Positions 26,205 to 64,000 of a stretch of 64,000 bases of DNA are shown here, in pieces (the stretch's first letter is position 1; each line of letters begins with the position of its first letter). The stretch covers positions 6,474,001 through 6,538,000 of the forward strand of contig NZ_LT607754.1 of NCBI RefSeq assembly GCF_900090285.1, written 5' to 3'. The position numbers and the translations under genes were made by a program. The stretch comes from Micromonospora inositola (GTDB taxonomy: Bacteria; Actinomycetota; Actinomycetes; Mycobacteriales; Micromonosporaceae). The notes beneath the pieces are model-generated. The model was not told where the DNA came from. It searched no databases and saw only the letters and a program-made list of their open reading frames with translations.

Positions 26205-26948
26205 ATGGGTCGCGCTATGTCCACATTCGCCCTGGGTGTCACCGCTCTCACCGCCGCCGTGCTGGTGGACACCGCGCCCGCGTATGCAGCAACCGAGCAG
26301 CTGCGGCTCGACTTCGATGCCACACCAAGCGGGCAGGTCGAGCCCGGGCCGTGGACGTCCGGCTGCTTCGCCGATGTCGCCACCCCCGGCGACTCGGGGT
26401 GCATCGCGGTGAGCGACCCGGGCAGCATCTCCCGGGCGACCCGCCCCAACGGCACCGGCGCCAGCCCGGCGATCGCCTTCCCCGCCTCCGGCAGCGCCGT
26501 AATCCAGGTGCCGGACGCCGCCAACCTCAACCCCGGTACCCAGGACTTCACGGTCAGCGCGCTGGTGAAGATCGCCTCGAGCCAGGTGACCAGTGGGGCC
26601 AACCTGATGCAGAAGGGTTTCTTCGCCGACCCGGCCCAGTGGAAGCTCCAGCTCGACAACGGCACGCCGGGCTGCCGCATCGCCGGCACTGGTGCCAGCG
26701 GAGCAACCTCACTACTGCTCACTGCGGACGCCGCCATCGCCGACCAGGGCTGGACGTTCGTCCAGTGCAAGCGGCGCGGTGACGTGCTGAGCCTGATCGT
26801 CGGCGGCCAGGTGGTGAAGACCGGGGCCGGCGCCACCATGGACATCACCAGCACCGCGAAGGTCAACATTGGTGCCAAGGGCCCCGGCCTGACCAACAAC
26901 GACCAGTTCCGCGGGGAGATGGACAACGCCCTCTTCAGCGTCGGTTGA
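26205..26948 (+). CDS. secreted LamG-like (concanavalin-type) protein
   Basis: About 247 residues from ATG 26205 (MGRAMSTFALGVTALTAAVL), with TCCGGAGGAC as ribosome binding site. The signal peptide is cut near AYAATEQ. The mature part is a jelly-roll of the LamG/concanavalin class, with LRLDFDATPSGQVEPGPW, QDFTVSALVKIASSQV, WTFVQCKRRGDVLSLIVGG and a closing DNALFSVG. Members of this group bind or present glycans, but no catalytic residues can be named. It converges with the beta-helix gene across a hairpin terminator. Confidence 0.8.
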   Translation: MGRAMSTFALGVTALTAAVLVDTAPAYAATEQLRLDFDATPSGQVEPGPWTSGCFADVATPGDSGCIAVSDPGSISRATRPNGTGASPAIAFPASGSAVIQVPDAANLNPGTQDFTVSALVKIASSQVTSGANLMQKGFFADPAQWKLQLDNGTPGCRIAGTGASGATSLLLTADAAIADQGWTFVQCKRRGDVLSLIVGGQVVKTGAGATMDITSTAKVNIGAKGPGLTNNDQFRGEMDNALFSVG

Positions 26949-47660: not shown

Positions 47661-47981
47661 TTATGCGGCCTGGGCCTCCAGGGCGCTGGCCGTTGATCGT
47701 TCGTAGTCGATGGGGGACCGCCAGTCGCAGACGGAGTGCCGGCGGCGCTGGTTGTAGAAGTCGGTGATCCAGGTGGCGATCTTCAGTCGCGCCTCGGTGC
47801 GCGTGCGGAACATGCGGCGGTGTATGTACTCGACCTTGATGGTGGAGAAGGTGGCCTCGGCGACGGCGTTGTCGAAGCACGACCCGACCCGGCCCATCGA
47901 CTGGCGCACCTTCCATCGGGCGCAGGCCCGGGCGAACTCGGCCGAGGTGTACTCGGCGGATTCAACCGGTGGTCGCAACAC
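47661..47981 (-). pseudogene. IS3-family orfB C-terminal fragment (left arm)
   Basis: 106 codons: EYTSAEFARACARWKVRQSM, GSCFDNAVAEATFSTIKVEY, FYNQRRRHSVCDWRSPIDYE. It contains the last catalytic Glu but lacks the first two Asp positions. It differs from the right arm by one residue (Pro versus Arg at position 4), which implies recent duplication or gene conversion between the arms. Confidence 0.8.
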
Positions 47982-49362
47982 CGGGTTGTTGGAGCGATCG
48001 TAGGTGTTCGTCGAGGGCTTCGGCTGGAGTCTTCCAGTCGAGGGTTTTCCGGGGTCGGCTGTTGAGGGCGTGGGCGACGGCGTTGATCTCGTCGGCGCTC
48101 CATCTGGATAGGTCGGTGCCTTTCGGGAAGTACTGCCGCAGCAGCCCGTTGGTGTTCTCGTTGGTGCCGCGTTGCCAGGGGCTGTGGGGGTCGGCGAAGA
48201 ACACCGGGACGCCGGTTTCGACCGTGAAGCGTGCGTGCGCAGACAACTCCTTGCCGCGGTCCCACGTCAGCGACCGGCGCAGCTGCTCGGGCAGTTGGGT
48301 GATCGTCTCGGCGAGGGCTTTGCTCATCGTGATCGCCCCATAGCCGGCGAGAGCAGGACCGTTCTTCGTCCGCGGGATCACACCCCAGCCGGCCTCACGA
48401 GGCAGGTGGACTAGCATCGTGAACCTCGTCGTCCGCTCGACCAGTGTCCCGATCGCGGAGCGCTGCAACCCGATGATCAGATCCCCTTCCCAGTGCCCGG
48501 GGACGGCACGGTCCGCGACTTCAGCGGGCCGTTCACTGATCAGCGTGTCGCTTGTGACGTGCGCCCATGCGCGTTGCTTCGCGCGGGCTCGGGGAACCCG
48601 AAGCGCGCGACCGGTCCGCAAGCAGGTGACGAGTTCGCGCTTGAGGGCACCACGGCTCTGGACATAGAGCGCCTGGTAGATCGCCTCATGGCTGATGCGC
48701 ATGGACTCATCCTCCGAGAACTCGGCCCTGAGCCTGCGGGAGATCTGCTCCGGGCTCCACCCGGTTGTCCATGCCCGATCGGCCCGGTGGGGCTTGTTCC
48801 GGCCCTTCCACTGCGGGCCCTGCGGGCCGGTGACCAGTCGGCCATCCGCTGTCCGGATCGCACCCGCAAGCCTTTGCTGGACGTACTCTCGGAGCCGCTC
48901 ATTGGCCAGCAGCTTCGCGGTCTTCGGCCGGCGGGCTCGACGTTCCGCATGCCACTGCGCGGTCGAAGCCTTGTAGTCCAACCGGTACGTCCTGGTCGAG
49001 GCGTTGCGCCGCAACTCCCGCGAGATCGTCGACGGGTCTCGGCCAAGCTGGCGTGCGATCTCACGAACGCCCATGCCTTGCGCTCGCGACAGAGCGATGT
49101 CCTCTCGTTCGCTGAACGACAGATAGCGGCCTGACACCGTCGGCGGCAACGCAGGATTCACGCCGCCAGCGTGCCGGAACCACCGGAACCCAACCGGCGA
49201 CGACACACCCGCCACCGCGGCCGCGTCCTCGGTCATCACACCGGATCGGATCGCAGCCCAAAACTTGACCCTGTCCTCACGCCACGCCACCGTCGGCCGC
49301 CCCGGCGAAGGAATCTGACCCCGATACTCCCGAACCCGCTTCTGCCCCGGCCCATAAGCCAT
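47962..49362 (-). CDS. IS30-family transposase
   Basis: A full-length 466-residue transposase. The N-terminal HTH includes SGRYLSFSEREDIALSRAQG, REIARQLGRDPSTISRELRR and WSPEQISRRLRAEFSEDESM. The DDE domain shows PGHWEGDLIIGLQ, LTWDRGKELSAHARF and RGTNENTNGLLRQYFPKGTD, with the standard C-terminus LNSRPRKTLDWKTPAEALDE. Its last codons run into the left IS3 arm. All three catalytic positions are present, so it is probably active. Confidence 0.92.
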   Translation of the reverse strand: MAYGPGQKRVREYRGQIPSPGRPTVAWREDRVKFWAAIRSGVMTEDAAAVAGVSSPVGFRWFRHAGGVNPALPPTVSGRYLSFSEREDIALSRAQGMGVREIARQLGRDPSTISRELRRNASTRTYRLDYKASTAQWHAERRARRPKTAKLLANERLREYVQQRLAGAIRTADGRLVTGPQGPQWKGRNKPHRADRAWTTGWSPEQISRRLRAEFSEDESMRISHEAIYQALYVQSRGALKRELVTCLRTGRALRVPRARAKQRAWAHVTSDTLISERPAEVADRAVPGHWEGDLIIGLQRSAIGTLVERTTRFTMLVHLPREAGWGVIPRTKNGPALAGYGAITMSKALAETITQLPEQLRRSLTWDRGKELSAHARFTVETGVPVFFADPHSPWQRGTNENTNGLLRQYFPKGTDLSRWSADEINAVAHALNSRPRKTLDWKTPAEALDEHLRSLQQPGVATTG

Positions 49363-49382
49363 CGCTCCACCTCTCCGACGAG

Positions 49383-49703
49383 GTGTTGCGACGACCGGTT
49401 GAATCCGCCGAGTACACCTCGGCCGAGTTCGCCCGGGCCTGCGCCCGATGGAAGGTGCGCCAGTCGATGGGCCGGGTCGGGTCGTGCTTCGACAACGCCG
49501 TCGCCGAGGCCACCTTCTCCACCATCAAGGTCGAGTACATACACCGCCGCATGTTCCGCACGCGCACCGAGGCGCGACTGAAGATCGCCACCTGGATCAC
49601 CGACTTCTACAACCAGCGCCGCCGGCACTCCGTCTGCGACTGGCGGTCCCCCATCGACTACGAACGATCAACGGCCAGCGCCCTGGAGGCCCAGGCCGCA
49701 TAA
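49383..49703 (+). pseudogene. IS3-family orfB C-terminal fragment (right arm)
   Basis: The inverted copy of the left arm, same 106-codon frame with one substitution. It starts right at the IS30 border (GTGTTGCGACGACCGGTTGA) and ends at the outer terminal repeat. Not functional alone. Confidence 0.8.
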
Positions 49704-53831: not shown

Positions 53832-54968
53832 TCAGGCGACAGGGCGCAGCCGGCGGACGAACGTGTCGGGGCTGTCGGGTTGGGTCGTTTCCCAACGCCG
53901 CTGTAGTGCCTCGATCAGGTTATTGATCATGGGTTCGGTGACGTGGCTGTAGATGCCTCGCACCCCGGCGAGGCGGTGTCCGAGGCGGCGGGCTTGGGCG
54001 ATCTCGGGGATGCCGTCTTCGATGAGCCAGGTCTTGTGAGTGTGGCGCAGGTCGTGGAAATGCATGCCGGGCAGCACTGGTGGAATGCCGCGTTCCGGGT
54101 CGCCGGAGACGGACGGGGTCCAGGCACGGCGGTTGAAGTTGGAGCGGCGTTGGTGGTGGCCGCGGGCGCCGGGGAAGACGGTGTCGTGGGGGTGTTCGGC
54201 GAGGTGGGTGGCGAGGAGGTTGGTGAGGAAGCGGGGTAGGCGGATGTGGCGGACGGAGTCGTTGGTCTTGGGTGGGCCGAGGTACAGCTTGCCTTCGACT
54301 TCGTGCAGCGCGCCGACGTCGGGGTGGACGTAGATGCTGCCGGTGGTGAGGTCGAGGTTGTCTCGGTGGAGGCCGGCGAGTTCTCCCCATCGCATGCCGG
54401 TGTAGGCGGCGGTGAGGATCATCAGCCCGTCGGAGGCCCGTGGTTGGCGGGCGACGATGGCGGCGACCTGGTCGGCGGTGGCGTGGGGTCGTTCGGCGCG
54501 GATGCCTTTGGGGATACGGATGCCGCGGCAGGGGTTCAACGGGATCCGCCGGTCTTCGACCGCTTCCTGGAGGATCATCGACAGCACCGTGATCACGTCG
54601 GTGACGGATCGCGGTGAGAGGCGCTTGCCGAGAGTGACGGCGAGCGTCTTGATGTGTTGGCGGCGGATGTCGGCCAGGGGCAGCGGGCCAAGGGCGGGCA
54701 GGATGTGCAGCCGCAGGTGGCTGCGGTAGGCCGACCAGGTGGCCGGGGATGCCTGGTGTGTTGACTGCCAGATCGGTACCCAGTCGGCGAGGGGGATGCG
54801 TCCGCCGCGGGGGTCGATGAAGGTGTCGCGGGCGACTTCCACGTCGATCTCTTTGGCGCGGATGACGGCGTCGGCGCGCGCGTCGTGGACGGAGTCGGTG
54901 GTGACGGTGCCGTCGGGCATGCGGAGGCGGACGCGGAATTTGGTGCGGCGTTTCTCCACCCAGGCCAT
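53832..54968 (-). CDS. tyrosine-family site-specific integrase
   Basis: A 378-residue integrase. Residues 1-60 form an AP2-like arm domain (MAWVEKRRTKFRVRLRMPDG), followed by a SAM-like core-binding domain at 61-160. The catalytic domain keeps Arg193 (YTGMRWGELAGLH), Lys234 (GPPKTNDSVRHIRLP), His305/Arg308 (FHDLRHTHKTWLIEDG), His331 (RRLGHRLAG) and Tyr340 (IYSHVTEPM). Type and length match integrases of actinobacterial integrative elements. The excisionase gene lies directly upstream on the same strand. This is the most complete integrase in the window and probably mobilises, or once mobilised, the 54-64 kb region. Confidence 0.93.
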   Translation of the reverse strand: MAWVEKRRTKFRVRLRMPDGTVTTDSVHDARADAVIRAKEIDVEVARDTFIDPRGGRIPLADWVPIWQSTHQASPATWSAYRSHLRLHILPALGPLPLADIRRQHIKTLAVTLGKRLSPRSVTDVITVLSMILQEAVEDRRIPLNPCRGIRIPKGIRAERPHATADQVAAIVARQPRASDGLMILTAAYTGMRWGELAGLHRDNLDLTTGSIYVHPDVGALHEVEGKLYLGPPKTNDSVRHIRLPRFLTNLLATHLAEHPHDTVFPGARGHHQRRSNFNRRAWTPSVSGDPERGIPPVLPGMHFHDLRHTHKTWLIEDGIPEIAQARRLGHRLAGVRGIYSHVTEPMINNLIEALQRRWETTQPDSPDTFVRRLRPVA

Positions 54969-55347
54969 GGCTATTTCTCCGATCGGTTCGTGTGCGCGGT
55001 GCGTCGGTGATGGACGCGTGACTTCCGGCGTGGGGCAAGTCGGTGGTGGTAGGCGGTCGTGGGCGTCGCCGGGTGGGGCGCCGTCCGGTGGCGGGTTCCG
55101 CGGCGGCGGCGATGAGGGCGGCGAGGTCGGCGGCGGAGAAGCGCAGGTGCTTGCCGAGGAAGGTGCAGGGGATCTGGCGGCGGCCGGCGCGGCGGCGCAG
55201 CCAGGATTCCGTGACGCGCAGTCGTGCTGCGGCTTCTGACGGGGTGTAGAGACGCGGGTCTTGGTCGTCGCTGTGACCGGTTACGTGGGCAGGTGGGGGC
55301 GCGGGTGGCGGTAGCCGGCGTCGGGGTCGAGGCGGGGTGGATTGCAT
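53920..55347 (-). CDS. excisionase-like helix-turn-helix protein, frame overlapping integrase
   Basis: From ATG 55347 (MQSTPPRPRRRLPPPAPPPA) residues 25-90 form a MerR/Xis-type HTH: RLYTPSEAAARLRVTESWLR, RRAGRRQIPCTFLGKHLRFS, ADLAALI. This is a typical element excisionase and stands upstream of int. There is no stop codon in the frame before the integrase start (54968). The frame stays open, in a different phase, through almost all of int to 53920. The HTH part is well supported; the last 350 residues are arginine/proline-rich and are most likely an overrun caused by a lost stop. Expected normal length is 80-130 aa. Confidence 0.55.
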   Translation of the reverse strand: MQSTPPRPRRRLPPPAPPPAHVTGHSDDQDPRLYTPSEAAARLRVTESWLRRRAGRRQIPCTFLGKHLRFSAADLAALIAAAAEPATGRRPTRRRPRPPTTTDLPHAGSHASITDAPRTRTDRRNSHGLGGETPHQIPRPPPHARRHRHHRLRPRRARRRRHPRQRDRRGSRPRHLHRPPRRTHPPRRLGTDLAVNTPGIPGHLVGLPQPPAAAHPARPWPAAPGRHPPPTHQDARRHSRQAPLTAIRHRRDHGAVDDPPGSGRRPADPVEPLPRHPYPQRHPRRTTPRHRRPGRRHRRPPTTGLRRADDPHRRLHRHAMGRTRRPPPRQPRPHHRQHLRPPRRRRAARSRRQAVPRPTQDQRLRPPHPPTPLPHQPPRHPPRRTPPRHRLPRRPRPPPTPLQLQPPCLDPVRLRRPGTRHSTSAARHAFPRPAPHSQDLAHRRRHPRDRPSPPPRTPPRRGARHLQPRHRTHDQ

Positions 55348-55455: not shown

Positions 55456-56633
55456 TCAGTGATAGCGGCACAACAAGAGGCGGAGGGCGGTCGCTTGGGC
55501 GAGGACGACGCCGTTGCCGAGGACGCGCAGCGCGCCGGTGCGGGGCAGTCGGAGCGTGGGGTCGGTGACCCAGTGCTCGGGTAGGCCCATGAGCCATTCC
55601 ACGAACGGTGGCGCGAGCACGGGTTTGCCGTGCTGCCCGGGTTGGGTGGGTTCGGGGACGGGGATCAGGAGTTCCCAGCGGGCGATCGCGGTGGCGTAGA
55701 TCCCCCATGTGGCCCCGTCGAGTGTGCCGAGGCTGCCGCTGGTGAGCTGGGCGACGGTGGTGCGCAGGTCCGGGCCGCCGTCGCCGTGGCGGCCGGGGCC
55801 GCGCGCGTCGGAGGCCCGGGGCGTCGGAAGGCAACAACCTGGAAGACGCACCGCCGCTGACGGCAGGGTGAGGTCCCCGTGCGAGCCGCGTTGTCCGGCG
55901 CAGCCTTTCTGCCCGTCGGTGGCACGCAGGGTGGGCAGCAGTACCTCTGACAGGGGCGGCCGGAAGCCCGGGCCGGCACGGCGGCCTGAGGTGCCGGTGT
56001 CGCTAGCACGTGGGGTCGGCAGAAGGTTATGCCCGGTGCCGTGAGGTTCGATGACGTCGGGCAGTCCGCGCTGGTGGCCGGGTCCCTTGCCGTCACGGGC
56101 GCAGGGTGTGGGCAGCGTCCGCAGCCTCTCCCCCGCCGCCGTTGGCGAGCAGGAACAGCCGGTCGCGTCGGTGGGCGGCGCCGATGTCGGATGCGCGTAG
56201 GCATAGCCAGCTCGTGTCGTACCCGAGCGCGGCCAGGTCGGCGTGGACGACGTCGAGTCCGCGTCTGCGGAGGGCGGCCACGTTCTCCACGAACACGACC
56301 GGGTCGAAGACAGCGAATGGCCTGGGTGATGTGGGTCCAGAGGCTGGAGTGGGGGCCTGTGATGCCGGCGCGTTTGCCGGCGTTGGAGATGTCCTGACAG
56401 GGGAATCCGGCGGTGAGGACGTCGACGGCCGGAACGCGGGTCCAGTCGACGGTGCGGATGTCGCCGGAGTTGGGCACATCGGGCCAGTGGTAGGCGAGGA
56501 CGGTGCGGGCGTGTCGGTCGACCTCGACGTACCAGGCGAGCCGGCCGCCGAGCACCAATTCAACGGCCATGTCGAGGCCGCCGTATCCCGTGCACAGCGA
56601 TCCGATCCGGGGCCCCGGGCGGTGGTCACTCAC
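55456..56633 (-). pseudogene. DNA (cytosine-5-)-methyltransferase with two frameshifts
   Basis: The start ATG 56633 opens a frame with motif I (SLCTGYGGLDMAVELVLGG) and the catalytic PCQ motif (TAGFPCQDISNAGKRAGITG). Near 56306 it must shift to read VVFVENVAALRRRGLDVVHA (ENV motif) and ASDIGAAHRRDRLFLLANG (motif VIII). Near 56098 it must shift again to a frame with three LPTPRASD-like repeats. That frame continues to the C-terminus PFVEWLMGLPEHWVTDPTLR and VLGNGVVLAQATALRLLL. Taken together it is a complete enzyme of about 390 residues, but the present sequence cannot make it. Either recent decay or sequencing indels in GC-rich runs. Confidence 0.85.
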
Positions 56634-56672: not shown

Positions 56673-57671
56673 TCAGTCATCGGCGGCCCCGAGCGGGTCG
56701 GGCTTCTGGGTCTTGGCGAACACGAGGACGTCTTCGTGTGCGATGAGGTGCATCGGGGTGCCCGCGGTGCGGGCCCGGCGGACCTGCTGGAGCTGGAAGA
56801 AGCTGGGCCGGGCGACGAGGTGCCCGTCGCGGACGGCCGCCAGTAGGGCGACGCACCGGTCCACCGGGGTCAGGCCGGCGCGGATCCCCGCGCCGATGAC
56901 CGCTGACGGCAGGTCGACCAGCTGGCCGTGCTTGCGCCAGGGGCGGGCGGTAACCACGACGATCCCGCCGGGGCGCAGCAGAGTGTGGCAGCCGGCCAGG
57001 ATCTGGGCGAACCCGTCGGCGAGTCCGGTGAGGTCCCGGTAGGCGAGGTTGCCGCGGTCGGTGCCGTCGTTGTAGGCGTTGTCGAACTTCGCCACCCCGT
57101 CCGCGCCTGGGCGGACCAGGCCGTGGACGGTCGGCCCGTACGGCGGCGACGTCACCACCAGGGCGACCTGGCCGGCGAGGGCGGCGGGAACGAGGGACAG
57201 GATGCGGGTTGCGTCGCCGCGCATGACCGCGCCCCTGCCGGTCGCTCCTTGGCGTTGGGCGTGGGCGATGTTGGCGTCGGCGATGTCGGACCAACGGGAC
57301 TCGTATTCGACGCCGATGGCGTCGCGGCCGGCGTGGATGGCCTCGACGAGGGTGGTGCCGATGCCGCACATCGGGTCGAGGACCAGGTCCCCGGGGTTGG
57401 TGTAGGCGGCGACGGCGTGGGCGGCGATCGCCGGCAGCATCCGGGCGGGGTGCTTCACCGATTCGGCCACGTACCGGCCTCGGCGCTGCACCGGCCCGGT
57501 GCTCTGGGCGGTCGCCCACACCGACAGGCCCTCTGGCCCGGTCGGGGCCGGGTGGCGTCCGTCGTACTCCCGGTGGCGATCCTCGGTGGCGCGGTGCGTG
57601 CCGCCGGTGCCCTCCGGCCGGGCCGGCTCGTCCGGTGCGTGGGTGGTGGGGTGCTCAGCCACGGCGGTCAC
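56673..57671 (-). CDS. SAM-dependent methyltransferase (DNA N4/N6-type motifs)
   Basis: A 332-residue protein starting GTG 57671, overlapping the upstream gene by 17 bp. The SAM motif is VLDPMCGIGTTLVEAIHAG (99-107 core), and the catalytic motif IV follows as VVTSPPYGPTVHG (174-178). This order I-IV fits gamma-like N6/N4 DNA methyltransferases, although DPMCG also occurs in RNA methyltransferases. The C-terminal part has LVDLPSAVIGAGIRAGLTPV and PSFFQLQQVRRARTAGTPMH. It is the second gene of a two-gene operon in the integrative element; no restriction enzyme is seen nearby. A role in self-protection or element regulation is possible. Confidence 0.82.
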   Translation of the reverse strand: MTAVAEHPTTHAPDEPARPEGTGGTHRATEDRHREYDGRHPAPTGPEGLSVWATAQSTGPVQRRGRYVAESVKHPARMLPAIAAHAVAAYTNPGDLVLDPMCGIGTTLVEAIHAGRDAIGVEYESRWSDIADANIAHAQRQGATGRGAVMRGDATRILSLVPAALAGQVALVVTSPPYGPTVHGLVRPGADGVAKFDNAYNDGTDRGNLAYRDLTGLADGFAQILAGCHTLLRPGGIVVVTARPWRKHGQLVDLPSAVIGAGIRAGLTPVDRCVALLAAVRDGHLVARPSFFQLQQVRRARTAGTPMHLIAHEDVLVFAKTQKPDPLGAADD

Positions 57672-58530
57672 CGCCCTCTCGGTGCCGCCGCCGTTGCGAC
57701 GGGGCGGCCGGTGGGGGGCTGAACACCAGCAGGTCGGCGTGGACGCGGTGGTGCGTGAGCGTCCACTGTTGCCCGGCCGTCTCCTCGGCGAGGGCGAGGA
57801 GTTCTTCGTCGGTGACGTGGTAGACGAAAGCGTCGGTGTCGGTGTCGGCGGTGACCGCGACGATGTGCTGCAGGTAGCCCAGCCCGACGTTCGCCGCTGC
57901 GGCGGCGAGAGGGCTGAAGTCCTCCGGCGTCGCGGTGGTGCCGGCGGGGACCGCGACGATGAGCACGAGGCAACCGCCGGGGCGCAGCAGCCGGGCGCAG
58001 GCGGCCAGCAGACACGCCAGGCGCACCTGGCTCGTGGCCTCGTTCTCGTCGAGGGGCCAGGAGGCGACCAGCAGGCCGGTCGCCTGCGGCGAGCCATCGG
58101 GGTCGGCCGGGTCGGTGAGGTCGTCACCGAACCAGGCGCTCACCTCCGGCACGTCGTCGTTGAACTGCTGCTGCTCGGACGGGTTGGGTTCGGCAGGTTC
58201 GCTGGCCGGGCCGATGAGGAGGTTGGGTCCGTCGGTGAACCAGCAGGGGTGGTGCCGGCGCCGCCCGGCGAGGCAGGCGGTGGTGAGGGCGTGGTCGTCG
58301 GTGCAGTCGACGACAGTGTCGCCGGGCCGGCTGTAGGCGGACACGAGGCGGTAGGCCAAGCGGGCACCGACGGTGCGGCCTGCGTCGGCGGAGGTTCGGG
58401 CGGTGCGCCACACAGTGATCGGCACCGGCGGGTCGCCGGCCACAAGATCGGTCTGGGTCGGGTCGGCGCCGGAGCGGTCCGGGTCGACGGGGCGGGCGGG
58501 GGGCTGGTGCTGCGGCGTGTGCTCGCTCAT
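57655..58530 (-). CDS. methyltransferase-like protein without obvious catalytic motif
   Basis: A 291-residue protein from ATG 58530. It has a Rossmann-like pattern: RLAYRLVSAYSRPGDTVVDC (motif I position, but TDDH instead of FxGxG), GLLVASWPLDE where (D/N/S)PPY would be expected, and LLAACARLLRPGGCLVLIVA. The loss of both hallmark motifs suggests a degenerate or regulatory subunit partnering the next gene, which it overlaps by 17 bp. A phased GTGAG array and conserved 35-bp block lie directly upstream. Confidence 0.7.
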   Translation of the reverse strand: MSEHTPQHQPPARPVDPDRSGADPTQTDLVAGDPPVPITVWRTARTSADAGRTVGARLAYRLVSAYSRPGDTVVDCTDDHALTTACLAGRRRHHPCWFTDGPNLLIGPASEPAEPNPSEQQQFNDDVPEVSAWFGDDLTDPADPDGSPQATGLLVASWPLDENEATSQVRLACLLAACARLLRPGGCLVLIVAVPAGTTATPEDFSPLAAAAANVGLGYLQHIVAVTADTDTDAFVYHVTDEELLALAEETAGQQWTLTHHRVHADLLVFSPPPAAPSQRRRHREGGDRRG

Positions 58531-58567
58531 GTGGTGTCGGCTCCGCGCCGCGCAGGCAGTGCGCTGA

Positions 58568-58639
58568 CACCCTCAAACCCGTGTTTGTGTGCTCTGGCGA
58601 ACGCCCCCCGTTCTCACAACGGCTCACGGTCGCTCACAA
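58568..58639 (-). promoter_or_regulatory. element promoter/operator: GTGAG array plus 35-bp block
   Basis: On the minus strand GTGAG occurs three times exactly 10 bp apart (CTCAC on plus at 58613, 58623, 58633). Ten bases later comes the 35-bp block (58568-58602) GTTCGCCAGAGCACACAAAC continuing to GGGTTTGAGGGTG. The same pair recurs inverted at 63612-63673. It ends 38 bp before the methyltransferase-like gene. A regulator-binding array with promoter is the best explanation. Confidence 0.65.
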
Positions 58640-58677
58640 CCAGCGCGAAATGAGGTACTTAGCCCCGATGTCTCGCC

Positions 58678-58806
58678 TCACGACCTCGTGGTTGCCCCGC
58701 TTCGCAGCGGAACGGTGTCGCCGGTGCGGCACCATTGGGTCAGGGCCCGCCAGCCGAAGGCGAGCAGCAGGCCCGGCAGGTAGAGCAGCAGCGCGAGCCA
58801 GGCCAC
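58678..58806 (-). pseudogene. N-terminal fragment of an isoprenylcysteine-methyltransferase-like membrane protein
   Basis: GTG 58806 opens MAWLALLLYLPGLLLAFGWR followed by ALTQWCRTGDT. This is the typical start of short membrane methyltransferase-like proteins that neighbour cation-efflux genes in actinobacteria. A TGA ends it after 42 residues and nothing further is recognisable. Confidence 0.45.
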
Positions 58807-58809
58807 GGG

Positions 58810-59199
58810 TTACGCCGTCCGGTCGGTGCAGCAGCCATCGGTGCAGCCCGGGCCTTGGCCGGTGGCGGCGTCGACGGCAGGCAGGGGTGCGCAGTCGTCG
58901 CAGTGTTCACCGCGCCAGGCTTCAACGCCTTCCTTGACCGCGACCCCGGCGATGACGAGCGCGGCGATCGGGTCGGCCCACGACCAGCCCCAGACGGCGT
59001 TGAGGACCAGGCCGACGAGCAGCACCGTCGAGAGGTAGGTGCACAGCATGGTCTGGGTCGAGTCGGCGGCCAGCCGGTCGCTGCCGGAGACAGGATCGTC
59101 CGGCGCGGAGGAAACGTCGCGGGCGCCACGCTGGGACCGTGGGAGGCCTGGTCGTGGTCCCTGACCGAACTGATACCCGACGCCTTTCCGCCCTGCCAA
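58810..59199 (-). pseudogene. cation diffusion facilitator transporter, C-terminal fragment
   Basis: Recognisable from SGSDRLAADSTQTMLCTYLS, with TM helices STVLLVGLVLNAVWGWSWAD and PIAALVIAGVAVKEGVEAWR. A Cys-rich tail follows: GEHCDDC, GCTDGCC. These are the last TM helices (with the metal-site Asp pair in ADSTQT/ADP) and tail of a CDF family exporter. The first two-thirds are missing; the frame upstream is not CDF-like. It and the small membrane fragment after it are the remains of a metal-efflux operon. Confidence 0.75.
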
Positions 59200-59212
59200 T
59201 CACACGGCGTTT

Positions 59213-60502
59213 CTAGGTGGCGACGAGCAGCGCCGGGCGGGCATCCCGGGGCAGCCTCCATTTGGCGTTCCGGTCGGTGAAGTCGAAGTTGGACCTGTCG
59301 ATCACCACGTAGCCGTCCGTGGCGTACACGTGAAAGGACCGGTGAGCACCGGCTGGCAGCTGAACTTGGGACTGAGCCTGCCCCGTGCGCTGGTCAAGTC
59401 GTGACAACTCGTCGCGGTCGGTGACGACGTACACGCTGGTCCGGTCCGCAGTGACGTCGCTGACGGTACCGGCGAAGGATCGCTGCCATACGGGGGAGCC
59501 ATCGAGGCCGGACACGGCGCGGACGGTGTCGCGGACCGAGAGGTACTCAAGCGTCAGGTCACCGACGTCGACGGCGATCCAGTCGTGGGGCCACACCCCG
59601 GTTATCGAACCGTCCTGGTGGATGCGCCAGCTTCCGCCGTCGTTGCTGACGTGGAAGCCGTCGCACATGGACTGCGCCACCACACAACCGGAGGGCTCAA
59701 CGAACCATGATCGGTTCGCAGCGGGCGAGCCTGCCGTGGGTTGCCACGTGGTCAGCTCGCGTCCGGATTCGGCGTCGTACAGTTGCACCTGCTTCGGCCG
59801 GTCACACGCCAGGACCACCGCGACCACGGTCGGTCCGGTCCAGTTCACTCCGGAACATCCGGGCAGGTCGACCTGCCACAGCCGCCGCCCGGTCGCGGGT
59901 TCGAACGCGTCGAGGGAATGTTCGCCGGAGCTGACGAGCACGGGGGCATGCTGCCGGGTCTCGGTGGCGAACAGCTCAATCAGGCTGTCACCGTAGACGG
60001 TCGCGACGCCGGTCGGACCGCCGATGTAGCTGTCGCCGCCGATGTCCCGCTCGACCGTGGCACGCCACGCGATCGTGCCGGTTCGCCCGTCCATTCCAGC
60101 CAGCGCTCCGTCGGACCACTTCACCACGACCATCGGCGGGTTCGCTCCGTGTGCCGGAATCGCGACCACTCCGGTGACGTCCGCCGGAAACCGGTGGTAC
60201 GACCAGAACGGCGGATGCCCATCCGCCGCGGTCAACGGTTCGGCCCACACATCGTGCTCGGTGCCGAAGACCCGCAACCGCCGTTCGACTATCAACGGTG
60301 CGGCACGCAGCGCGGCGACCACCCCGGACCGGGGAGAGGCGACCGCGTCCGGATAACGGGCGGTTGCCGCCGTGTGCCATTCGCCCGGCTTGACCATGAA
60401 ATAGGTGCCAACCCCGCACGACGCGACGAGCACCAGCACCATGGCCGGCACCGCCCAGACCCACCATCGGACAGCACGGCCACGCCGTACCTCGCCAGCC
60501 AT
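59213..60502 (-). CDS. membrane-anchored PQQ-type beta-propeller protein
   Basis: About 429 residues from ATG 60502 (MAGEVRRGRAVRWWVWAVPA). One N-terminal membrane helix (VWAVPAMVLVLVASCGVGTY) leads to an external domain. Propeller blades show the tryptophan-docking repeats of PQQ-like beta-propellers: GRTGTIAWRATV, EPATGRRLWQVDL, LDGSPVWQRSFAG and TDRDELSRLDQRTGQAQSQV. Such proteins are scaffolds or sensors with no fixed chemistry. It is not in an operon with the flanking fragments. Confidence 0.8.
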   Translation of the reverse strand: MAGEVRRGRAVRWWVWAVPAMVLVLVASCGVGTYFMVKPGEWHTAATARYPDAVASPRSGVVAALRAAPLIVERRLRVFGTEHDVWAEPLTAADGHPPFWSYHRFPADVTGVVAIPAHGANPPMVVVKWSDGALAGMDGRTGTIAWRATVERDIGGDSYIGGPTGVATVYGDSLIELFATETRQHAPVLVSSGEHSLDAFEPATGRRLWQVDLPGCSGVNWTGPTVVAVVLACDRPKQVQLYDAESGRELTTWQPTAGSPAANRSWFVEPSGCVVAQSMCDGFHVSNDGGSWRIHQDGSITGVWPHDWIAVDVGDLTLEYLSVRDTVRAVSGLDGSPVWQRSFAGTVSDVTADRTSVYVVTDRDELSRLDQRTGQAQSQVQLPAGAHRSFHVYATDGYVVIDRSNFDFTDRNAKWRLPRDARPALLVAT

Positions 60503-61201
60503 GCCCCGCCCCCGTGAACGCACACCTGATACTGCCACTTCCGGCCGGACAGCCATGACCCGTCGCCGCCGCCCTCGCGGCGCGGGATCCACTTGTCGAA
60601 CTGCGCCCGCACTAGCTGGACGTGCTGGGCACGGCCGCTGGCTCCGGCGTCGACCGTTCAGCCGCCAGGCGCCTGATCAATCGATTGACCACCGGTCATC
60701 GTCGCCGGCCGTGGCATGACACCGTCCCCGATGACATCGGGCTGACGCGCCCCGGTGACGGCACTGTCGTCAAAGCGGTCGACGCCGCAATGACATCAAC
60801 GGCGTCCGGTGTGACATTGCGGTCTGCGACCGTGCCACCGACCCGACGCTAGTCGTTGTGAGCGCTCGTGAGCGGCTGTGAGTGTCATCGCCTGCGTTGT
60901 CATCGGCCGTCACGAATCGGGCGGACACCTCGCCCGCTAGGGCGCGGAGAGTCGATGCCATGGCGGGTAGCGGTGTCACAGTACAGCTCAGGGGCTGTAT
61001 CACATACCGCTCTCAACGATCACAGTCGATGTCAGGGAATCGGTTCGGGATCGTGCCATCGATCGGCGCGGCGGTGTCAGAGGCGGCGCAACCTGCGCCG
61101 TGAGGGCCTTGTGAGTCGCTCGTGTCGTAATCGGCGCCTGCCTGGTGCCGTGACACCACGACGGCGCCAATCGACATTCTTCGTTGCTTGGGGAGTGTGA
61201 C
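60503..61201. other. regulatory intergenic region of the integrative element
   Basis: About 700 bp without a believable gene. It contains a phased GTGAG array (60857-60883) and at least six ATGACA/TGTCAT-like words between 60710 and 60905. Further GTGAG words at about 61100 and 61111 lie 90-100 bp before the sigma-like gene. Divergent promoters for the propeller and sigma-like genes must be here. Confidence 0.5.
60857..60883 (+). promoter_or_regulatory. three GTGAG words at exact 10-bp spacing
   Basis: GTGAG at 60858, 60868 and 60878 (TTGTGAGCGC, TCGTGAGCGG, CTGTGAGTGT). The same phased words occur at 58613-58637 (inverted) and 63614-63628. One helical turn per unit points to a protein that binds side by side on one DNA face. 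Confidence 0.6.
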
Positions 61202-62086
61202 ATGACCGCCTCTGACATCGACTGGCCCGCCTCACCGCTGGACGCCGCCGACGCCGCGTTCGCCGCACTGACCTGCGACCCCGCACCGATGACACTCGAC
61301 CCTGACACGTTCGCCCCCGACACCGGCCTGCCCGACGATGCCATGACACTGCCGGCGCTGCGGGACTGGCTCCTCGCGCACCCGCGCGCCTTCACCGCGC
61401 GCGACGAGGTGTGGCGGGAGTTGACCCGCCGCGCCCGCCTCCACGGGCCGGCGTGGGTGATCGCCGCGGTCGGCATGGCGATGCCGGCGCTACGCCGCTA
61501 CGCCAATCACCTGAGCGCTGGCTACGGCGGCGATCCGGACGATATCGGCGCGGAGGTCCTCACCGGCTTCCTGGCCGCGCTGCGCGACCGCGTCGACCTG
61601 GCCCGCGACGCCCCCTACGCGGCGCTGTGCCGGGCGGCGTTCCGGGCCGGCTACGCCCTGCGCCAACAGGCCGGCGAGTACACGTCGGTGGACAACGTCG
61701 ACCACGTCACCGGTCCCCGCACCCCCGCCATGCCCTACGGGCACCCGGACCTGCTCGTCCAACGAGCGGTCGGCCTGGGCATCCTCGACCGGGAGGACGA
61801 ACAGCCCTACATCGACATCCGGCTCGGGCGGCGGGCGATCGAACGGGTCGCCGCCCGCCTCGGCATCACCGTCGACGCGTTGCGCATGCGGCTGGGACGC
61901 ATCGACACCCGCCTCGCCGACGCCCTCGCCAAAGGGCTGCTGACCGGCGTGACCAGCCAGCAGACGGCTGAGGAGCTCGCCCACCAAGCCGTGCACCGCT
62001 CGGCCACCCGCACTGGCCTCGCCGCGGTTAGCGGCCGCATCGCCGATCAGGTGCCGGTGTCCACGACGGCGGGGCTCGCCGCCTGA
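61202..62086 (+). CDS. sigma-factor-like regulatory protein of the integrative element
   Basis: About 294 residues from ATG 61202 (MTASDIDWPASPLDAADAAF). The middle has WVIAAVGMAMPALRRYANHL and DPDDIGAEVLTGFLAALRDR, like sigma region 2 (D-E-hh-x-h layout). The C-terminal part has AIERVAARLGITVDALRMRL followed by GRIDTRLADAL, a region-4-like helix-turn-helix. Proteins of this kind are encoded in actinobacterial integrative elements and likely regulate transfer genes. It is downstream of the GTGAG-rich region. Confidence 0.7.
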   Translation: MTASDIDWPASPLDAADAAFAALTCDPAPMTLDPDTFAPDTGLPDDAMTLPALRDWLLAHPRAFTARDEVWRELTRRARLHGPAWVIAAVGMAMPALRRYANHLSAGYGGDPDDIGAEVLTGFLAALRDRVDLARDAPYAALCRAAFRAGYALRQQAGEYTSVDNVDHVTGPRTPAMPYGHPDLLVQRAVGLGILDREDEQPYIDIRLGRRAIERVAARLGITVDALRMRLGRIDTRLADALAKGLLTGVTSQQTAEELAHQAVHRSATRTGLAAVSGRIADQVPVSTTAGLAA

Positions 62087-62325
62087 GTCACACCCCCGCG
62101 CCGCGTCAATCCGATGCCGCCACACGAGAGACCCCTGAAGGTCCTCGCCGGCCGCATCGACCCGCCGGCGAGGACGCTCGGCTGTGCCGGCACGTTGGGG
62201 GGGCTGTCGGCAGCGTCGATACTGCTGAACGTGAGCGCACGGCCGAGCCACAGGGTTCGAAGGACGCCGACTCACGACATTGGTCGACCGCTAGATCTTC
62301 AGACGCCCCGTTCGGCGTGCGGGGG

Positions 62326-62604
62326 TCAGCTGATTAGTTGGCGGATCACCACGATCGCGATGAACACGACGATGAACGCCAAGTCGATCGAGACCGTGCC
62401 CAACCGCAACGGGGGCAGGAACCGCCGAACTGGAGCAAGGATCGGCTCGGTGACCGCTCGCGCTCCGGCGGACAGCCGCGACCGGATCGACCCGGGCGCC
62501 GAGGGACCGGCGAGCGCCACGCTCCAGTCGAGCACCACGCGGGCAACCAGCAGCAGCTGCATCAGCAGCAAAATCAGGCTCACGATGCCGAGCACAGGAC
62601 CCAT
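62326..62604 (-). CDS. YggT family membrane protein
   Basis: 92 residues from ATG 62604: two hydrophobic helices (VLGIVSLILLLMQLLLVARV and FIVVFIAIVVIRQLI) around the conserved YggT loop SAGARAVTEPILAPVRRFLP followed by LRLGTVSIDLAFI. In actinobacteria YggT normally follows sepF/divIVA in the division cluster; here it is isolated. Complete and probably functional in membrane or osmotic/division-related processes (poorly defined). Confidence 0.85.
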   Translation of the reverse strand: MGPVLGIVSLILLLMQLLLVARVVLDWSVALAGPSAPGSIRSRLSAGARAVTEPILAPVRRFLPPLRLGTVSIDLAFIVVFIAIVVIRQLIS

Positions 62605-62699
62605 GAGATTCCCTCCAGAACCAGTTTGACCCAGCTCAACTGTGCGTCACCTTGTGGTGAATCCGCTGAGCGACAAGCTGTTACTCATGGCTGAACGCG

Positions 62700-62822
62700 C
62701 CGTACAGCGGGGTTGTCCTCTACCTCGCCGGCCGACTGCTGTTCCTGCGGCTTGCCGTCCGATCCGCCCCGCCAGCGCAATTCGCCGCCGTCGGCGTGGC
62801 CCTCCTCCTGCTACCGGCGGAG
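62700..62822 (+). pseudogene. LtrA family, internal C-terminal relic
   Basis: The plus frame reads VLYLAGRLLFLRLAVRSAPP, then QFAAVGVALLLLPA. This aligns with the paralogue text ALYLAGRATFLSLSIRSVPP at about 31105-31170. Only 40 residues remain, fused to the opposite-strand decarboxylase relic. Confidence 0.65.
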
Positions 62823-63156
62823 CAGACGCTGAGCGCCGGGCCCTCCCGCTCGATCCAGCGCAGCACCGCCCGGCAGGCCAGGGCCTTGGCGGCGTACGCC
62901 ACGTTGGCCGCCCCGAACGCCGCCGCGTACTCGCGACAGCGGGCACGCACGTCCTCCGCGTCCAGCACATAGGTCGGCGTGCGACACCGTGCCGAACGTC
63001 AACCAGCCGGCCGAACTCCTCGGCGATGTCCGTCAGCGCAACGCCACCCACGCGGATCCCGCCGGACTCGCATCTGGTGGTCGCCGGCCACAGACGCACG
63101 GGCAGGCGCGGTGGCAGCGACGCCCGTGACGGCGGGATCGCGTCCAGCAGGGTCAT
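62790..63156 (-). pseudogene. diaminopimelate decarboxylase (LysA) N-terminal relic
   Basis: Frame 1 from ATG 63156 reads SLPPRLPVRLWPATTRCESG and GIRVGGVALTDIAEEFG. After a short insertion the next frame reads TPTYVLDAEDVRARCREYAA, VAYAAKALACRAVLRWIERE and LSVCSAG. These are the N-terminus and the PLP-lysine strand (AYAAKA) of diaminopimelate decarboxylase. The rest of the roughly 450-residue enzyme is lost. Upstream residues CRMWLRIAPWRESEVHYP belong to another unrecognised, truncated frame. Confidence 0.7.
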
Positions 63157-63611
63157 GATTCCTCCCCCGCTTGGGTCAGATCCGGCTGCCGCAGCAGCAG
63201 ATGGGTAATGCACCTCCGACTCCCGCCACGGCGCGATGCGCAACCACATCCGGCACCCGACCAACTCGGTGCTACGCCGTGCCTCTGGATCGGAGGTCCT
63301 GAGGGCCACGCCTCACGGTGCCGCACGATCCCGCCCAAGCGCGAGAATCAATACGCAATCGCTACGGCTCTCCCCGTTTTCTTGACGCTCTAGCGACGCC
63401 GGCAGGCGCCAGGGGGCCGGCGCGACCGCCCGGCGCCACCATCGCGGCGGCCGAACACGACAGCGGGCTTGCCATCGAACGGTGGGCAGCTACGCGGACA
63501 AGCCGTGCCGGTGGAGCCGGCTGACCGTCAGAACCAGCCCCCGGAAGGCCGGTGCCACGTCGCGGACCGGGAGACCCGCTCTGACCTGCGGTGGGAGACA
63601 TCCGGGTGGCG
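63157..63611. other. region with no intact gene
   Basis: Short minus-strand peptide GCRMWLRIAPWRESEVHYPS ahead of the LysA relic is probably the tail of a lost gene. The remainder has only shadow frames. Confidence 0.35.
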
Positions 63612-63673
63612 CTGTGAGCCGCTGTGAGCGGGGACCGTGTTCGCCAGAGCACACAAACGCGGGTTTGAGGGTG
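63612..63673 (+). promoter_or_regulatory. element promoter/operator, second copy
   Basis: GTGAG at 63614 and 63624 (10 bp apart), then the 35-bp block at 63639-63673, 34 of 35 bases matching 58568-58602 in inverse orientation. It points towards the gene starting at 63966 and other genes beyond the window. Confidence 0.65.
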
Positions 63674-63965
63674 CGGAAACTCTTCCCGCCCGGCCCGTGC
63701 CGGGCACCCGGGAGGTTCCGCCCGCCGCCGGGCCCGGACATCGTCGGGCCGCCACGAGCTGGACGCCTCGGGTGCCGCGCAGTGCTTGGTGCGCTGACAC
63801 CTCATCGAACACCGCAACCCGCGAGGGAGGACGAGCTCCTCCCGAGGCCGGTGCGGCTCGCGCGCGTCCCGTTCTCCGCGCCCGGCGGCGGTCCCCTTGA
63901 CCGCCCGCTAGCGCCCCGCCGCCCCGCCCCTGGTGACGGCGGCGGGGCCGGAGGTGACCCCACTC

Positions 63966-64000
63966 ATGTCCCGCATCCCGGCACTCCTGCGTTCCCTCAC
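63966..64000 (+). CDS. gene start, N-terminal part (runs off window)
   Basis: ATG 63966 (MSRIPALLRSL) follows a strong ribosome binding site GGAGGTGA at the usual distance. Only 11 codons are in the window, so nothing about its product can be said. Confidence 0.5.
   Translation, partial: MSRIPALLRSL

What the first reader, a model, noticed from the sequence alone, without database searches (positions are those of the whole stretch)
58568..63673. Shared operator of the integrative element: GTGAG words phased at 10 bp with a 35-bp block
GTGAG occurs three times at exact 10-bp steps at 58613-58637 (inverted) and 60858-60882, and twice at 63614-63628. Two of these are followed at the same distance by a 35-bp block with 34 identical bases. 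Such strict phasing is a hallmark of cooperative repressor or activator binding. The sites lie upstream of methyltransferase, sigma-like and off-window genes, defining a regulon for the element.
Basis: seen in the sequence. Interest (0 to 1): 0.7.

Follow-up and report, generated by a model that had tools for sequence, protein, structure and literature searches.

The report
Phased operator code of Micromonospora ICEs
A conjugative element in a soil bacterium carries short words repeated once per DNA turn in front of its integration, transfer and regulator genes; relatives use the same layout with different words, which looks like a private on-switch code for each element family.

Summary
GTGAG repeats at exact 10-bp steps at three places; two are followed, after 10 bp, by a 35-bp block (34/35). 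Five of the genome's 14 GTGAG-N5-GTGAG hits lie in these 5 kb; the block has no other copy in the genome (up to 3 mismatches). In relatives the block repeatedly flanks one gene, here sigL (sigma-like fold): one copy points at methyltransferase-xis-int genes, the other at a type IV secretion operon. I read the block as a core promoter. It holds an inverted copy of the array word, and both change together: 91 of 92 GTG arrays have a GTG-type block, 12 of 13 GTC/GTT arrays a GTC-type block. Actinoplanes, Virgisporangium and Longispora loci keep the layout with other words. SigL is the best candidate to read the word; its recognition helix partly tracks it, short of significance. Small elements without sigL or transfer genes nearby carry the same operators, five of six in two word classes, as if listening to two helpers. 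Binding and sign of regulation are untested.

The parts
58613..58637 (-). array A: three GTGAG words at 10-bp steps
58568..58602 (-). block A: GTTCGCC (-35-like) at 58596-58602, inverted word CACACA at 58586-58591, GTTTGA (-10-like) at 58573-58578
   Evidence: the -35/-10 reading is inference
58531..58567 (-). class A leader (TCAGCGC...GCGC...GACACC) up to the ATG of the next gene; partly self-complementary by eye
   Evidence: conserved start; no folding run on it
57655..58530 (-). first gene behind block A, conserved in many of the ICEs, no Pfam hit
56676..57482 (-). DNA methylase domain (N6_N4_Mtase)
55668..56633 (-). C-5 cytosine DNA methylase domain
55039..55266 (-). excisionase-like HTH segment just upstream of the integrase
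   Evidence: the excisionase label is recalled, no family search run on it
53835..54968 (-). tyrosine integrase (Phage_integrase)
60858..60882 (+). distal sigL array: three GTGAG words at 10-bp steps, no block
61100..61115 (+). proximal sigL pair: two GTGAG words at an 11-bp step, 102 and 91 bp before the ATG; a pair near this place in 25 of 33 loci looked at
61202..62086 (+). sigL: 294-aa protein with a sigma-like predicted fold; best candidate reader of the words; putative recognition helix residues 224-243
63614..63628 (+). array B: two GTGAG words at a 10-bp step
63639..63673 (+). block B: GTTCGCC (-35-like) 63639-63645, inverted word CACACA 63650-63655, GTTTGA (-10-like) 63663-63668
   Evidence: the -35/-10 reading is inference
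63673..63965 (+). structured RNA leader of the transfer operon; core 63765-63847; GGAGG before the ATG at 63966
63966..64000 (+). start of the T4SS pilin gene (runs off the window); then TrbL, a gene in PrgI position (label recalled), VirB4-like ATPase, coupling-protein-like ATPase, Replic_Relax

Best explanation
This is the operator-promoter of the master regulon of a conjugative integrative element. Each site has two to four direct copies of a short word, about one helical turn apart, upstream of a core promoter (GTTCGCC, 16-17 bp, GTTTGA-like box) whose spacer holds one inverted copy of the word. The element's own sigma-fold protein SigL, encoded between the two divergent copies, reads the word through its region-4-like helix-turn-helix, probably as a cooperative row, and recruits RNA polymerase. 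It thereby turns on recombination (methyltransferases, xis, int) and conjugation (T4SS pilin to Replic_Relax) together and tunes its own promoter. Shown by computation: the sites, their phasing, conservation, covariation of array word and block word, gene order, the RNA leader, and a sigma-like predicted fold.
Confidence: 0.5

Rival explanations
1. Same operator, but the bound protein represses: rows of SigL (or another element protein) on the array and on the inverted spacer site block RNA polymerase until a signal relieves it.
For: The inverted word lies between the -35-like and -10-like boxes; words also stand before sigL itself, as in autorepression.
Against: Direct words lie upstream of the -35-like box, a usual place for activators (general knowledge); the protein has a sigma2-like domain.
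Confidence: 0.25
2. Another element protein reads the words: the excisionase, the conserved winged-helix protein downstream of the transfer operon, or Replic_Relax, acting like BldC or RdfS filaments.
For: BldC oligomerises head-to-tail on direct repeats (PMC5859096, passages) and RdfS, a wHTH directionality factor, forms filaments and binds ICE DNA (PMC11963761, abstract and outline).
Against: The xis HTH stretch is nearly the same in the 6 loci where it was found, among them one with GTC arrays (L170; but its blocks are GTG-type, so this test is weak). The winged-helix gene has no match in 5 of the 8 genomes holding sigL elements without T4SS genes nearby, which still have arrays. The Replic_Relax HTH differs between elements with the same word (these copies may not be orthologous).
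Confidence: 0.22
3. The words are iterons or transfer-origin sites (replication, nicking, partition) and only incidentally lie near promoters.
For: The 700 bp before sigL are word-rich, in L145 with 13 GTGAG words, many at 10- or 20-bp steps; the small elements keep about 1.1-1.4 kb of apparently non-coding DNA between these sites.
Against: Constant gap to a conserved promoter-like block, polarity away from sigL, and conserved leaders starting at the end of the block.
Confidence: 0.12
4. The two blocks are a recent duplication or recombination repeat without function.
For: 34 of 35 identical in this element.
Against: In relatives both copies persist with diverged flanks and matching word changes.
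Confidence: 0.01

Closest known systems
BldC of Streptomyces (MerR-like, direct-repeat filaments; PMC5859096, passages read)
   Same: Variable number of direct repeats bound head-to-tail by cooperative multimers at promoters.
   Different: BldC reads AT-rich repeats (AATTxxxxC) and is a small wHTH protein; here words are GTGAG-type, differ between elements, and one inverted copy sits in the promoter.
AcaCD of IncA/C plasmids and SGI1 (PMC4605294, abstract and outline read)
   Same: A helper's master regulator of transfer genes also acts on a small integrative element, at its xis promoter.
   Different: AcaCD is an FlhDC-type activator of Gammaproteobacteria elements, shown by experiment; here a sigma-fold protein in actinobacteria, inferred, with several word classes, two of them in one small element.
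RdfS of ICEMlSymR7A (PMC11963761, abstract and outline read)
   Same: Oligomeric regulator linking excision and conjugation, binding attP and promoter regions of the ICE.
   Different: RdfS sites show no consensus motif; here the motif is strict and phased, and xis is not the favoured reader.
ECF sigma factors (recalled; compared by fold)
   Same: Predicted sigma2-like and sigma4-like parts.
   Different: Not recognised by the family models, extra N- and C-terminal parts, and a presumed role in reading repeated words outside the promoter core.
Actinobacterial ICEs surveyed by Ghinet et al. 2011 (PMC3218068, passages read)
   Same: Integrating conjugative elements of actinobacteria with int, xis and regulators.
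   Different: The passages seen describe FtsK/SpoIIIE-type elements with Pra, KorSA and XRE regulators; this element has T4SS genes and sigL.

Membership tests
ECF/sigma-70 family (SigL) | sigma2 plus sigma4 fold | tested here: inconclusive
ECF/sigma-70 family (SigL) | match to curated sigma models | tested here: not met
   0 Pfam families for the window protein; among 50 members 1 matches Sigma70_r2 and 2 PhyR_sigma2, best E 0.015; no sigma model in NCBIfam for 3 members scanned. Some sources name homologs sigma24-type or sigma-70 family.
ECF/sigma-70 family (SigL) | binds core RNA polymerase and directs initiation | not testable with these tools
   needs biochemistry
BldC-type direct-repeat regulators | direct repeats at about helical spacing | tested here: met
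BldC-type direct-repeat regulators | AT-rich repeat unit | tested here: not met
   words GTGAG, GTCAG, GGACAG
helper-responsive mobilizable elements (SGI1-like) | small element without transfer genes or regulator carries the same operators before its own mobility genes | tested here: met
   L192 (G080): blocks before Replic_Relax and xis-int, no T4SS gene found in the stretch, genome not among the 99 with a sigL match
helper-responsive mobilizable elements (SGI1-like) | helper regulator activates excision in trans | not testable with these tools
   needs genetics
T4SS-type ICE | integrase plus T4SS genes plus coupling protein | tested here: met
T4SS-type ICE | relaxase activity and defined att sites | not tested
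   Replic_Relax found; element ends were not mapped

The most novel reading that the evidence does not exclude
Actinobacterial conjugative elements have evolved a set of mutually insulated switch codes: a sigma-fold master regulator reads an element-specific word, and the same word is written into phased arrays and, inverted, into the promoter spacers of its regulon, so that word, spacer site and recognition helix change together. Tiny elements lacking the regulator and transfer genes carry two different codes and so eavesdrop on two helper lineages.
Probability: 0.33. Interest if true: 0.82.

Novelty: new variant of a known kind. Interest (0 to 1): 0.62.

Why it matters
It gives a testable handle on how T4SS-type conjugative elements of actinobacteria may switch on integration and transfer together; five paper searches on this (listings seen) showed me no study of it. 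The natural word classes form a ready-made set for studying how a DNA-reading helix and its sites co-evolve, and the small elements would be a case of eavesdropping outside the SGI1/IncC pair. The leader RNA of the transfer operon is a further unassigned structured RNA.

Tried and rejected
Xis as reader: disfavoured, not excluded; the HTH stretch is nearly the same in 6 loci, but the only GTC-array locus among them (L170) has GTG-type blocks. On rechecking this I lowered the best explanation from 0.55 to 0.5 and the novel case from 0.35 to 0.33, and raised the other-reader rival to 0.22. The rivals overlap, so the figures do not sum to 1. Winged-helix gene L018:2089-2901: matches in 52 of 160 genomes, none in 5 of the 8 genomes with sigL elements lacking T4SS genes nearby. 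Replic_Relax as reader: HTH does not follow the word. A host-encoded reader: unlikely, since different word classes occur in one genome (G124: L049 and L143; G023: L058 and L156). Known RNA family for the leader: none at gathering score in the window, best E 5.5 in the leader stretch. Plasmid or phage homologs of SigL at E 1e-5: none in those two collections. Words near the sigL homologs at 41-43% (L186-L189): no block or triple array recognised. Among 30 loci, mostly distant, many showed no clear phased word; the 13 followed up were chosen, and two of them (L240, L253) gave no phased pair with the pattern used. Proof of the helix-word link: not reached. A first loose block pattern gave many chance hits and was replaced. 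The 29 first relatives (L048-L076) were found by block patterns and so lean to the GTG class; the 60 later ones were found by sigL. For the leader, 3 of 26 non-redundant candidates, from elements without T4SS genes, were dropped before alignment. My notebook says 54 of 60 loci with blocks; the recount gives 52.
Full report
What was checked. GTGAG-N5-GTGAG occurs 14 times in the 6,707,994-base genome, 5 of them in this 5 kb, and the pattern read backwards 4 times; the block has exactly two copies at up to 3 mismatches. The gap from last word to block is 10 bp in both.

Surroundings. Leftwards from block A lie a conserved gene without Pfam hit, an N6/N4 methylase, a C5 methylase, an excisionase-like HTH (my label) and a tyrosine integrase. 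Rightwards from block B, off the window, lie a T4SS pilin, TrbL, a gene in PrgI position (label recalled), a VirB4-like ATPase, a coupling-protein-like ATPase and Replic_Relax. Between the blocks lies the sigma-like gene, called sigL here, besides other genes. Named relatives are mostly Micromonospora, so the host is probably Micromonospora.

Relatives. The block was found in 25 of 160 genomes of the genus, a variant pattern in 29 of 160, overlapping. sigL matches at E 0.001 occur in 99 of 160 genomes (its list of places is capped). From that list I chose 60 loci outside the first set (56 at 55% identity or more, 4 at 41-43%); 52 of the 60 show a block. Of the eight without, four are the distant ones, L165 is a short contig, L172 has a triple array with a diverged block, L178 and L183 show none. 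Three kinds of element appear. (I) ICEs with methylases, sigL and T4SS genes, int seen where the stretch reaches it. (II) Eight loci with sigL and Replic_Relax genes but no T4SS gene in the stretch (L134-L139, L149, L150; xis-int seen in six of them), and L057 with an interrupted sigL. (III) Six loci with xis-int and/or Replic_Relax and the operators but no sigL in the stretch (L054, L056, L060, L066, L068/L192, L072). The genomes of L066, L068 and L056 (G068, G080, G157) are not among the 99 with a sigL match. Five of these six carry GTG-class and GTC/GTT-class operators; L072 shows GTG only; one L056 site is discordant.

Operator grammar. Selecting 142 sites in 90 loci by the flanks of the block alone, the array word predicts the inverted word in the block: GTG-GTG 91, GTG-GTGAC 1, GTG-GTC 0, GTC/GTT-GTG 1, GTC/GTT-GTC 12; 14 arrays are mixed, 23 sites have no array word and 13 of those look like chance hits. 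Of 129 sites kept, 41 differ by more than 20%; among these 22 (the GTGAC site counted as GTG) and 10 agree, none disagrees and 9 are not classifiable. Related sites are not independent, so the P values are guides only. In Actinoplanes couchii, Virgisporangium aliadipatigenens and Longispora albida, at 42-52% sigL identity, the layout persists with GGACAG or TGTGAGAG words and their inverted forms inside the block; one block there, before the first gene side in A. couchii, has a degenerate inverted word, and one step in A. couchii is 13 bp. In some still more distant homologs other repeats at 10 or 11 bp stand before sigL (TGTGG, CCTGTC, CTGACA, CTCAGA, CCTCTCA), in others none was seen. Summed over loci, identical 6-mers at 10 bp are in excess in both groups (130 against 14.0, 43 against 11.5), at 11 bp 37 and 46 against 13.7 and 12.9; but the distant group also shows an excess at 12 bp (39) and at several longer distances, and the inside-gene control has its own peaks at multiples of three. 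GTTCGCC is well kept; the box 16-17 bp downstream varies (GTTTGA, GTTTGG, GTTTAC, GTTTCT, GATTAG, GATTGA, GTATGT). I read them as promoter elements because both leader types begin at the block's end.

Leader RNA. Twenty-three leaders of the transfer operon (of 26 candidates) fold into a common structure whose first stem begins with the last base of the block. Cells with changes on both sides of a pair: 31 against 8.3 in shuffles (0 of 500 as high) and at most 7 when slid; 10 of the 11 pairs with such changes are in helices 1, 2 and 7, while the core hairpins hardly vary and so say little. A model of the 83-nt core has 65 matches in 50 of 160 genomes at E 1e-5 (I did not check the gene after each), none in 13 sources without T4SS genes, and matches in the Actinoplanes and Virgisporangium loci, weakly in Longispora. 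No Rfam family fits.

Reader of the word. SigL has no curated domain, but its model (pLDDT 80) resembles sigma factors. Of all alignment columns, 236 ranks first and 232 fourth in separating 49 GTG loci from 13 GTC loci, both in the predicted recognition helix; 100 and 156, elsewhere, rank second and third. The tree gives only 5 independent contrasts, 3 in favour, 0 against, 2 neutral. The alternatives tested look less good, the xis test being weak. So SigL as reader is likely, not shown.

Literature. Five searches on the topic listed nothing on the control of T4SS-type ICEs in Micromonosporaceae that I recognised; I judged by listings, and the library lacks most subscription papers. For comparison I saw passages of PMC5859096 (BldC), PMC6540685 (Gram-positive conjugation review) and PMC3218068 (actinobacterial ICEs), and abstract and outline of PMC4605294 (AcaCD-SGI1) and PMC11963761 (RdfS).

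Verdict.

Noticed in passing
window 63673-63965 and L017:11673-11965: About 290-nt structured, covarying RNA leader of the T4SS operon without Rfam match; its core has 65 model matches in 50 of 160 genomes of the genus.
   Followed up: partly
L192:12016-17962 (G080), L190/L191 (G068), L054, L060: Very small integrative elements (Replic_Relax and/or xis-int plus about 1.1-1.4 kb of apparently non-coding DNA) carrying two classes of operator; in G068 the integrase lies about 400 bp from a tRNA-Lys.
   Followed up: partly
window 60650-61200: The stretch between the gene at 59216-60520 and sigL is rich in TGTCA/TGACA words on both strands besides GTGAG; possible transfer or replication origin.
   Followed up: no
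L018:2089-2901: Conserved protein with winged-helix-like ends (by eye) and a long Ala/Pro-rich linker, about 13 kb downstream of sigL in this genome; matches in 52 of 160 genomes.
   Followed up: partly
window 58810-59199 and 59216-60520: Cation-efflux-like fragment and a PQQ-repeat-like protein (labels recalled) between block A and sigL; the first has copies in four of the 29 first relatives, the second in two, so probably cargo.
   Followed up: no
L057 and L186: sigL copies interrupted by stop codons or frame changes.
   Followed up: no
window 47661-49703: Two near-identical 106-aa transposase-like reading frames in inverted orientation around an IS30-like frame (labels recalled), about 4 kb left of the integrase.
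   Followed up: no
window 26708-26722: A sixth GTGAG-N5-GTGAG hit in the window, away from this region.
   Followed up: no
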